Source: Paludibacter sp. (GTDB lineage Bacteria; Bacteroidota; Bacteroidia; Bacteroidales; Paludibacteraceae). From it: 64,000 nt of DNA. The position numbers were made by a program, and so were the translations under genes. Positions 32,004 to 38,142 of this stretch are shown here, piece after piece. The first letter of the stretch is position 1; every line of letters starts with the position of its first letter. The stretch is taken from the NCBI GenBank assembly GCA_031292575.1, contig JARLGX010000005.1, positions 1 through 64,000 on the forward strand, given 5' to 3'. The notes beneath the pieces are model-generated. The model searched no databases. It had not been told where the DNA came from and saw nothing but the letters and a program-made list of their open reading frames with translations.

Positions 32004-32040
32004 TAAAAGTGTATGGTGTAAAATAGAACAAACCCCATTA

Positions 32041-32100
32041 CGCTTTACACCTTACACTTTACACTTTCACCTTTACACTTTCACCTTTACACTTAATAAA
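32041..32100 (+). repeat. 14-bp tandem repeat before the ABC exporter gene
   Basis: CACTTTCACCTTTA occurs at 32062-32075 and 32076-32089 and starts again at 32090. Degenerate TTTACAC/CTTACAC copies lie before it from 32042. It ends just before ATG 32103, so it forms the leader of that gene. Confidence 0.7.
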
Positions 32101-35053: not shown

Positions 35054-36538
35054 TCATTTAAATTTTTTCATGAAATCATCAATTTCTTTCTTTCGTTGGT
35101 CGCCCCAAAGTTTTATAGAATTGTTGAAATTATCAATGTTTTTAGTTAAGTCGTGAACAACTTCTTCATCGTTATTTTGGTTAAGTAGATAGGGATTGAT
35201 TTGTAGATTAATATATTTTAAATCTGTTTCGTTAACTCCTGTCCAGTCATAGTGGTATTGGATAGTGCAAATAGCAAAACCATATTTAGCTTGAAAAAAT
35301 AAAGCGAAAATTCCACCAGTCACTTGATATACATTTTTAGCCTTTACTGATAATCCAACAGTAAATATTTGATCGGAATAAATATTGATTTTATAGTCGT
35401 GGTCTGGTTTGGCTTGCTCATAAAGGTCGTCAATAATGGAAGATAGACCACCCCAAAATTTTGGATTTCTTTTTTGTCTTTGCTCTACTTCAAATAGACC
35501 ATTTACAGCATCTATGCCTTTTTCCTTTGATTTTTCTATTATTTTTTTGAATACTTTTTGTTGGTCAGAATAATCCATTTCGTTTAGAGGATTAGACTTA
35601 ATAACGTCTAAATCAATTGCTATTAGTTTCTCATTCAATGCATCAAAAGAATTTTTAATTATGATAGAATATTTCTCTTGAACTTTTTCCCTGTGGCTAG
35701 GAAGAAGACTTTCTTCAAAAGAAATTGTGCCAATTATGTCAATTTCTTTCTCGATTTCTTTTGTTGAGGATTTATCCATATTAGGTAACAATTGAGGTTT
35801 AGCTTTTTGCTGAATTACCGTTTCATCGAAAGAAAATACTTTGTAACCGGAGCTCCTGATTTCGCTTACTGGGATTTGTAGAAACTCGCTTTTCTCAATA
35901 ACTTTCTTTTTTATATAGTTATCAATTGCAAGAATTGTCAAAAAGCCATCTTCATCATAAAGTGTCAGTTTCTTTATTGCCTCAATTAGATAGAACGTAA
36001 AGTAACTATTCTTAATGTCATCACTTTGAATAGCTTTCTTTTTGCTTTCAGTTGCAAACATTAGGCAAAATTCAGTTGAGTTGTAATTTAGTCGTCTAAT
36101 TTCCTTTTCAGGATTATTAGATCCTTTAAAAAAAACATTCGACCCAGAATGACAAGCATCAATTAAAAGATATTGATTCTTGGGAGTTAATTTTAAAAAA
36201 TATCGGATAAGTATATCCTCTATGGTTAATTCAGTGTCATCTTCAAATAGAATCTTGGATTTCTGTTCATCATTATCATATTCTCCGTGTCCAGAAAAAT
36301 AGAAAAATAATAAATCTTGTTTAGGTCTGAATGATTTTTCTATTGCTGAGTATGCATTATCAATCTGTTGCTTGACAGGCATCTTACTATCTGTTACTTT
36401 GAAGATATTGTCTTTAATAAACCTACATTTAGTAATAAGTGTTTCCTCAAGGTCAACGACATCTTTCACACAATATGGTAATTCATTCCCATTGTAGTTG
36501 TCCATGCCAATTAATATCGCGAATCTAGTTTCGTTCAT
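35054..36538 (-). CDS. Caspase-like (peptidase C14) protein with unassigned C-terminal half
   Basis: The 494-aa protein begins with a caspase fold: FAILIGMDNY, the catalytic His84 in FYFSGHGEYD and Cys129 in LLIDACHSGSNVFF, both in the usual spacing. The caspase domain ends near residue 240. The remaining 250 residues have a Lys/Glu-rich helical segment followed by a domain (KINIYSDQIFTVGLSVKAKN and onwards) that I cannot assign. There is no signal peptide or membrane helix, so it is probably cytosolic. Bacterial caspases often serve in defence or programmed cell death, but no sensor or partner gene is adjacent. ATG 36538 is chosen as start. A -7 box (36708-36701) lies upstream. Confidence 0.85.
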   Translation of the reverse strand: MNETRFAILIGMDNYNGNELPYCVKDVVDLEETLITKCRFIKDNIFKVTDSKMPVKQQIDNAYSAIEKSFRPKQDLLFFYFSGHGEYDNDEQKSKILFEDDTELTIEDILIRYFLKLTPKNQYLLIDACHSGSNVFFKGSNNPEKEIRRLNYNSTEFCLMFATESKKKAIQSDDIKNSYFTFYLIEAIKKLTLYDEDGFLTILAIDNYIKKKVIEKSEFLQIPVSEIRSSGYKVFSFDETVIQQKAKPQLLPNMDKSSTKEIEKEIDIIGTISFEESLLPSHREKVQEKYSIIIKNSFDALNEKLIAIDLDVIKSNPLNEMDYSDQQKVFKKIIEKSKEKGIDAVNGLFEVEQRQKRNPKFWGGLSSIIDDLYEQAKPDHDYKINIYSDQIFTVGLSVKAKNVYQVTGGIFALFFQAKYGFAICTIQYHYDWTGVNETDLKYINLQINPYLLNQNNDEEVVHDLTKNIDNFNNSIKLWGDQRKKEIDDFMKKFK

Positions 36539-36636
36539 ATTTTTCTCAATTTTACATTTCACTTTCTTTCATTTCTAAACTTGCCCATAACACCCATATA
36601 TACCCTGTTTACTATTTTTATTCCTTTTTTTAGCTG

Positions 36637-37473: not shown

Positions 37474-37524
37474 AACTTTCTAGTTTTTTTTGATAAAACA
37501 TTTTTTTAATTAACTCTGAGAAAA

Positions 37525-37556
37525 ACAGGGCGAATAGCGGGCTATTCCCTCCCTGT
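37525..37556 (-). terminator. Terminator-like hairpin between repeat array and 221-aa gene
   Basis: ACAGGG (525-530) pairs with CCCTGT (551-556) and GAATAGC (532-538) with GCTATTC (541-547), with a small bulge between. On the minus strand the stem is followed by TTTTTCTC. It sits between the array and the start codon at 37473, as an attenuator or as the 3' end of an array RNA. Confidence 0.65.
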
Positions 37557-38142
37557 AGTGGGTAAATATTTAAGCGGAGTGAAAGAATATTTCTCAATCG
37601 GGAATCTTTTTCTCCTAATCTAAAATGTTTGCCGCTTAAGCAAGAATCTTTTTCTCCTTCTGGCAAATGCTTGCCAGTTGTTCTGAAATGAATCTTGCTT
37701 TGTAGAAATGCATTTTTGCTTAAGCGGAAATGTTTTTCTCTTTGGCAAGAATGTTTTTCTCTTTGGCAAGAATCAATACTTACGGGACGGGTACAGCGAC
37801 GCTTTGGAGATATTGGTTTTCGCCAAAGCGTGGAACTTTTCTTCGAAAGCAAAAAACATTTCCGCCAAAGCAAAATTGGTTTTTTAGTAAGCAAAATTGG
37901 TTGTGGATAAAGCGGGAAACGTTTTCTACAAAGCGATGAAGTTTTTCCACAAAGCGAAATATATTTCCGCTTTAGCGAAATTGCTTTTTTATGAAGCAAT
38001 GTTCTCTTTTTATTCGGAGAGGATGCATCGCCACATGGAGTAAAACAATATTTATTGGGAATGAATGCTTTGCTCCTTGAAGCGAAAGTCTCACACCAAA
38101 ACGTGAATAAACCTTTATTGCAGAATAAAGGTTTTTCCGGTT
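37556..38142 (-). repeat. Array of about 28 degenerate 21-bp units
   Basis: Units follow one another with a 21-bp step from about 37556 to 38142. The only break seen is one 20-bp step (37787 to 37807). Clear unit starts are 37724, 37745, 37828, 37849, 37870, 37891, 37912, 37933, 37954, 37975 and 37996. On the plus strand a unit starts GC, has an A-run at about 4-7, a T-run at about 10-15 and ends CTTTG or NAAA. Units differ at many positions, but 37724 and 37745 are almost the same. All six frames stay largely open because 21 is divisible by three, but the resulting peptides look non-coding. Confidence 0.85.

What the first reader, a model, noticed from the sequence alone, without database searches (positions are those of the whole stretch)
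37556..38142. Array of about 28 degenerate 21-bp units, flanked by promoter-like and terminator-like sequences
Seen: units keep a 21-bp step for nearly 600 bp (one 20-bp step), with conserved positions (GC start, A-run, central T-run, CTTTG or NAAA end) but different sequence at other positions. On the minus strand an exact -7 box with a -33 TTTG (38381-38354) lies before it, and a hairpin with five T residues (37556-37525) lies after it. This fits a discrete RNA of about 830 bases or a leader of the 221-aa gene. Inference: the unit may fold as serial mini-hairpins (GCGAAATATATTTCCGC at 37954) or carry many short guide- or decoy-like segments. I know of no described system with this layout.
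Basis: partly seen in the sequence, partly recalled or inferred. Interest (0 to 1): 0.8.

Follow-up and report, generated by a model that had tools for sequence, protein, structure and literature searches.

The report
Spacing-locked repeat array before orphan gene
A stretch of DNA repeats with a strict 21-base step, whose letters differ from place to place, sits in front of a little-known bacterial gene again and again across several phyla, and no system that I know of explains the pairing.

Summary
The array is real: lag-21 identity 0.49 against a mean of 0.27 over lags 1-69. It belongs to the 221-aa gene downstream. Of 102 distinct full-length relatives with enough upstream DNA, 83 have a tandem array in the 700 bp before them: period 21 or 42 in 80, 20 or 41 in 3; other genes of the same loci: 37 of 756. 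Relatives lie in Bacteroidota, Planctomycetota, Acidobacteriota, Armatimonadota, Verrucomicrobiota and five viral contigs, with up to 28 matches per genome.

Unit letters are mostly private to a locus; the step is kept. 30 of 62 arrays show dyad symmetry. Arrays are not generally coding, show no RNA-strand preference and little covariation. I favour a DNA element phased at two helical turns (inferred). The guide/decoy-RNA idea and the promoter and terminator claims are not supported.

The protein is a helical part plus a fibronectin-III domain, without a Pfam family. In planctomycetes and viral contigs, array plus gene head cassette-like rows in which 3'-end copies of the gene recur; cargo before a second paralogue is mostly defence-like (12 of 14 loci tested).

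The parts
37535..38012 (-). clear part of the 21-bp-step array (about 23 units), upstream of the 221-aa gene
38013..38142 (-). degenerate outer units; homology to the second array copy of the genome reaches 38083
37474..37534 (-). gap between array and start codon
36808..37473 (-). gene of the 221-aa protein (helices 9-100, fibronectin-III domain about 113-221), partner of the array
35054..36562 (-). caspase-domain gene directly downstream; membership of the unit not shown

Best explanation
The array is the cis-acting upstream half of a mobile gene unit: a tandem array with a fixed step of two DNA helical turns (21 bp; 20-20.5 bp in three copies of one genome) placed directly before a gene for a small helical + fibronectin-III protein. 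What is kept is spacing, often with dyad symmetry, and not sequence. Most likely it works as double-stranded DNA: a helically phased scaffold on which a sequence-tolerant, probably dimeric protein lines up on one face of the helix and sets expression (or mobility) of the gene. Shown by computation: the array, its pairing with the gene in five phyla, locus-specific units, the fixed step, few phase shifts, no general coding. Inferred: the DNA level, the bound protein, the regulatory role, mobility.
For: Pairing: 83 of 102 relatives against 37 of 756 control genes. Within 1.2 kb of a family match 81 of 90 arrays (period 15-30, score >=25) have period 21 and 3 have 20; farther away 7 of 15 have period 21, of which 4 are orphan-array rows (two in L006, one each in L089 and L103) and 3 are coding or heptamer repeats. 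Locus-specific units: seven copies in one genome show no common unit by eye; 17 array-bearing copies in G464. Step under constraint: 5 phase shifts against 2,892 substitution-equivalents in 62 arrays. Period 20 in L228 and L229 and 41 in L227 fits two helical turns, not codons. Dyad symmetry beyond phase-permuted controls in 30 of 62 arrays at p<=0.05. No RNA strand preference, no G-T excess, stops in every sense frame in 29 of 62 arrays.
Against: No binding protein is identified. Dyads are not universal; the window's own array misses p<=0.05 (0.115). The window array does have a stop-free sense frame (0 stops against 4.7 in column-permuted controls) inside a 309-aa open frame, and 33 of 62 arrays have some stop-free sense frame. 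Predicted curvature is no higher than for phase-permuted units (mean percentile 0.55). Phase-shift counting used arrays delimited by lag-21 matching, which may under-count indels. In 11 of 37 Bacteroidota loci a good promoter lies upstream of the array, so it is probably transcribed and RNA-level action is not excluded. A few arrays covary clearly by themselves (L042 z 3.9). 16 of 102 relatives have no array and 3 more a weak one.
Confidence: 0.42

Rival explanations
1. RNA leader: the array is transcribed as a chain of mini-hairpins in the 5' untranslated region and controls the gene's mRNA.
For: Dyads in 30 of 62 arrays; promoter matches upstream of the array in 11 of 37 Bacteroidota loci; folding below shuffles, z under -2 in 40 of 62; single arrays with covariation (L042, L099).
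Against: No sense-strand preference, no G-T excess and weak pooled covariation; a fixed 20-21 step is not needed for hairpins; no Rfam match.
Confidence: 0.2
2. By-product: the step is set by the way units are copied (slippage, unequal exchange or an enzyme with a 21-bp ruler at insertion) and the array has little function now.
For: New copies carry unrelated arrays while genes are 86-94% identical in DNA; homogeneous inner and decayed outer units in L121 and L127; orphan arrays exist.
Against: Old, diverged arrays (about 50% between neighbouring units) keep phase; pairing with the gene in five phyla.
Confidence: 0.2
3. Iteron- or centromere-like: the 221-aa protein reads its own array sequence and autoregulates.
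For: Array directly upstream of the gene, dyads, units unlike those of other copies in one genome.
Against: Proteins 97% (L066/L116), 92% (L223/L224) and 87% (L202/L205) identical have arrays no more alike than the null's 95th percentile.
Confidence: 0.1
4. The array encodes a 7-residue-repeat peptide.
For: 21 is divisible by 3; the window's sense frame is open over the array.
Against: Stops in all sense frames in 29 of 62 arrays; step 20 in L228 and L229.
Confidence: 0.03

Closest known systems
Iteron arrays of plasmid origins (recalled; one search is a search listing only)
   Same: tandem repeats about two helical turns apart directly upstream of a gene, units differing between replicons
   Different: no replication protein recognised, chromosomal and high copy, unit sequence can be uncoupled from protein sequence
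Integron cassette arrays (recalled; listings)
   Same: in planctomycetes, cargo is followed by copies of one site (here the 3' end of gene A) that mostly end at the same point
   Different: the site is the 3' end of a protein gene; no integrase tied to it; the 21-bp array is not itself a cassette site
TAACTGA heptamer direct repeats of Beggiatoaceae, Cyanobacteria and some Bacteroidetes (PMC4679880: abstract and passages seen)
   Same: intergenic direct repeats upstream of start codons, patchy across phyla
   Different: one fixed 7-mer before many unrelated genes; here free sequence, fixed 21-bp step, one gene family
REP/RAYT palindromic repeats (PMC3733652: start of abstract in a listing)
   Same: short palindromic repeats, many per genome
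   Different: RAYT is a transposase (recalled); here tandem arrays and no transposase-like protein

Membership tests
Integron | integron integrase next to the attachment site | tested here: inconclusive
   PF00589 search of 8 planctomycete genomes finds 4-15 matches each; only a 44-position fragment (G454:C174:1082-1216) lies right beside a 3' remnant (857-958, of the B type); IntI itself was not tested
Integron | cassettes separated by copies of one site with a common end | tested here: met
   28 of 35 fragments that start beyond residue 100 end at residue 226-227 of 227 (hand count from the table; at least 3 of the 28 are halves of a gene split by the search). Planctomycete genomes only; no such remnant for the window gene
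Integron | all cassette sites in one orientation | tested here: inconclusive
   four in a row on one strand in G454:C184, three in G455:C47, but G456:C3 has one the other way round and L066 has two distant fragments on the opposite strand
Integron | attC hairpin with GTT core | not tested
   most remnants end in GACGGTGGCGGCG or similar plus a stop, seen by eye only
Iteron replicon | replication initiator protein | tested here: inconclusive
   no Rep match in Pfam, NCBIfam or PHROGs; the structure list is filled by fibronectin-III
Iteron replicon | repeats read by the cognate protein | not testable with these tools
   97% identical proteins carry unrelated arrays, which argues against it
Described RNA family (Rfam 15) | match at gathering score | tested here: not met
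   0 matches in the window and in 10 planctomycete or viral loci
Heptapeptide coding repeat | a sense frame free of stops in all loci | tested here: not met
   29 of 62 arrays have stops in every sense frame; the window array has one open frame

The most novel reading that the evidence does not exclude
A new class of mobile genetic unit: a gene with a geometry-read (two-turn-phased, sequence-free) upstream array, and a 3' end that in planctomycetes and their phages serves as an integron-like attachment site collecting cargo, much of it anti-phage defence, with the recombinase supplied in trans.
Probability: 0.28. Interest if true: 0.93.

Novelty: categorically new. Interest (0 to 1): 0.8.

Why it matters
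A cis-element that keeps its step but not its letters, across phyla, is a kind of signal that sequence searches do not see; if it works, bacteria use spacing-only elements. I found no description of the family in the open-licence library. It reaches 28 matches in one 2.2-Mb genome, and in planctomycetes it marks places where defence-like genes accumulate, so it may be a handle for finding new defence cargo.

Full report
Observation. In 37556-38142 the lag-21 identity is 0.488, with peaks also at 42 and 63, against a mean of 0.269 (sd 0.060) over lags 1-69; the array holds the highest 300-bp lag-21 value of the window, 0.557. Tandem Repeats Finder sees only three short parts of it. The promoter and terminator claims are not better than chance.

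Pairing. Relatives come from 60 kin genomes, the own one included (14 of 60 have a match), 395 genomes of the phylum (5 of 395), the genome-contig scan (80 loci kept of 86: Bacteroidota, Planctomycetota, Acidobacteriota, Armatimonadota, Verrucomicrobiota, and one contig labelled Klebsiella that I take for a binning error) and viral contigs (5 loci). For distinct full-length relatives with at least 350 bp upstream I asked which period from 10 to 60 scores best in the 700 bp before the gene. 83 of 102 score >=20: period 21 in 50, 42 in 30, 20 in 2, 41 in 1. Of 756 other genes in the same loci 37 do, 22 of them with 21 or 42. Sixteen relatives score under 15: nine are the planctomycete B type, two are distant (L025, L034), five others (L058, L059, L085, L222, L233); three score 15-20. 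The loci were fetched through the gene, so this tests the pairing, not how common arrays are genome-wide. Among 13 loci of the phylum search that hold the array-type family, 13 have period 21 or 42 as best; the distant kin L003, L004, L025, L034, L128 and L130 have none. In 1.2 Mb (86 loci) 71 of 99 arrays have period 21 or 42.

Locus-specific units, fixed step. Unit consensus differs from locus to locus, by eye also among seven copies in one genome. In G464 17 of 20 scored family ORFs have an array; the three without are a cluster in L220, one of them only 125 aa; two further copies had too little upstream DNA. Within G464 most units look unrelated, but L207 and L208 are kin (0.61). In G471 9 of 10 copies have an array, three of them with step 20 or 20.5 (in L224 a period-33 repeat scores higher still); in G466 4 of 6. 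Unit similarity falls close to the null (mean 0.27) once protein identity drops below 50%. Genes 97% (L066/L116), 92% (L223/L224) and 87% (L202/L205) identical in protein have arrays with similarity 0.29, 0.40 and 0.41, under the null's 95th percentile of 0.43, and in these pairs the shared DNA starts 13-54 bp before the ATG. Orthologous loci keep their arrays, e.g. L019/L020, where homology runs through it. So gene and array can be separated, and unit letters are largely free.

What kind of signal. Dyad symmetry exceeds phase-permuted controls in 30 of 62 arrays (p<=0.05); the window's own array does not reach it (p=0.115). Within-unit covariation is weak and there is no G-T excess. Arrays fold better than shuffles (z under -2 in 40 of 62), but without strand preference. 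29 of 62 arrays have stops in every sense frame, while the window array has an open one. Five phase shifts stand against 2,892 substitution-equivalents. Among best periods upstream of family genes (score >=15) 20, 21, 40, 41 and 42 occur, never a codon-preserving 18 or 24, which points to two helical turns. Purine/pyrimidine pattern is kept between units better than strong/weak pattern (correlation 0.56 against 0.39 at lag 21); I have no explanation. A phased DNA element is my best reading; transcription through it is likely in some loci.

Planctomycetes and viral contigs. There the order is array, paralogue A, cargo, paralogue B. A has the array; B has none and instead a conserved leader of roughly 150 bp (14 B genes aligned). 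Eleven loci hold both A and B, B being incomplete in L070, L080 and L116. Between them, or beyond A, lie 3'-end fragments of A: in eight genomes 28 of 35 fragments that start beyond residue 100 end at residue 226-227 (hand count; at least three are halves of a gene split by the search). Of 29 distinct fragments reaching the end in the loci, 27 are followed by a stop codon (not L075:2808 and L098:266). Conservation after A ends at its stop (by eye). Most fragments point the same way as A, with exceptions in G456:C3 and L066. This looks like repeated integration at the 3' end of A. Of 14 loci whose cargo I tested (L119 shows no B on its piece), 12 have a PADLOC match at 1e-5 or better: candidate system PDC-M38 (L064, L069), type IIG restriction (L072, L115), methyltransferases (L066, L116), restriction enzyme (L078), Vsr (L119), PD-T7-4 (L071), Fic (L080), AAA ATPase (L067) and a weak viperin-type match (L118); L070 and L117 have none. 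Of 10 control genes 1 matches, a helicase in L064. Many of these PADLOC families are candidates or generic, and the genes were chosen by eye. Smaller cassettes carry varied single genes, by eye. Two viral contigs have phage structural genes beside the array (capsid in L115, terminase in L117). L115/L119 share array and A at 84% and L116/L118 share 1.57 kb ending with A at 85%, yet their cargo differs. No such remnant was found for the window gene in its own genome; the next gene downstream has a caspase domain with a PADLOC caspase match, which may be coincidence.

Spread. A tree of 106 family proteins is mostly clustered by phylum (14 changes for 7 groups against a shuffled mean of 35.7), with a Bacteroidota subgroup (G314) and the viral rows on the planctomycete side. 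Thus mostly old spread plus some lateral transfer.

Verdict. The array is half of a widespread two-part unit that I found nowhere described. The pairing and the spacing lock are well supported; the mechanism is inferred; the cassette behaviour is read from anatomy in planctomycetes and viral contigs only.

Noticed in passing
L006:1501-2040 (G000:C20:139976-140515): Second copy of the window array (82% identical) in the same genome, with no 221-aa gene beside it: an orphan array.
   Followed up: partly
L228 (G471:C374), roughly 180-340 bp upstream of the gene: A 20-bp-step array in which part of the units is inverted, making one large palindrome; the near-copy L229 has them in one orientation.
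   Followed up: no
14 planctomycete or viral B genes, e.g. L115:4853-5003: Strongly conserved leader of roughly 150 bp directly before gene B; no Rfam match in the 10 loci searched, no covariation.
   Followed up: partly
L103:16704-17345: A coding gene with heptad repeats gives a 21-bp DNA period by protein constraint; a caution for genome-wide scans.
   Followed up: no
L038:1059-1170: TAACTGA heptamer direct repeats in a Bacteroidales contig, like those of PMC4679880.
   Followed up: no
L089:2359-2538 and L103:17855-18301 (both from the MAG reached as G464): Two more 21-bp arrays without a family match within 7 kb.
   Followed up: partly
L202 and L211, 38-65 bp after the family gene: Leucine-rich-repeat-like (BspA-type, by eye) proteins directly downstream of two copies in G464.
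   Followed up: no
window 32038-32095: Short 14-bp tandem repeat (TTACAC type), score 76, just before the 612-aa ABC-transporter-like gene.
   Followed up: no
all 62 arrays: Purine/pyrimidine pattern is kept between units better than strong/weak pattern; unexplained.
   Followed up: no
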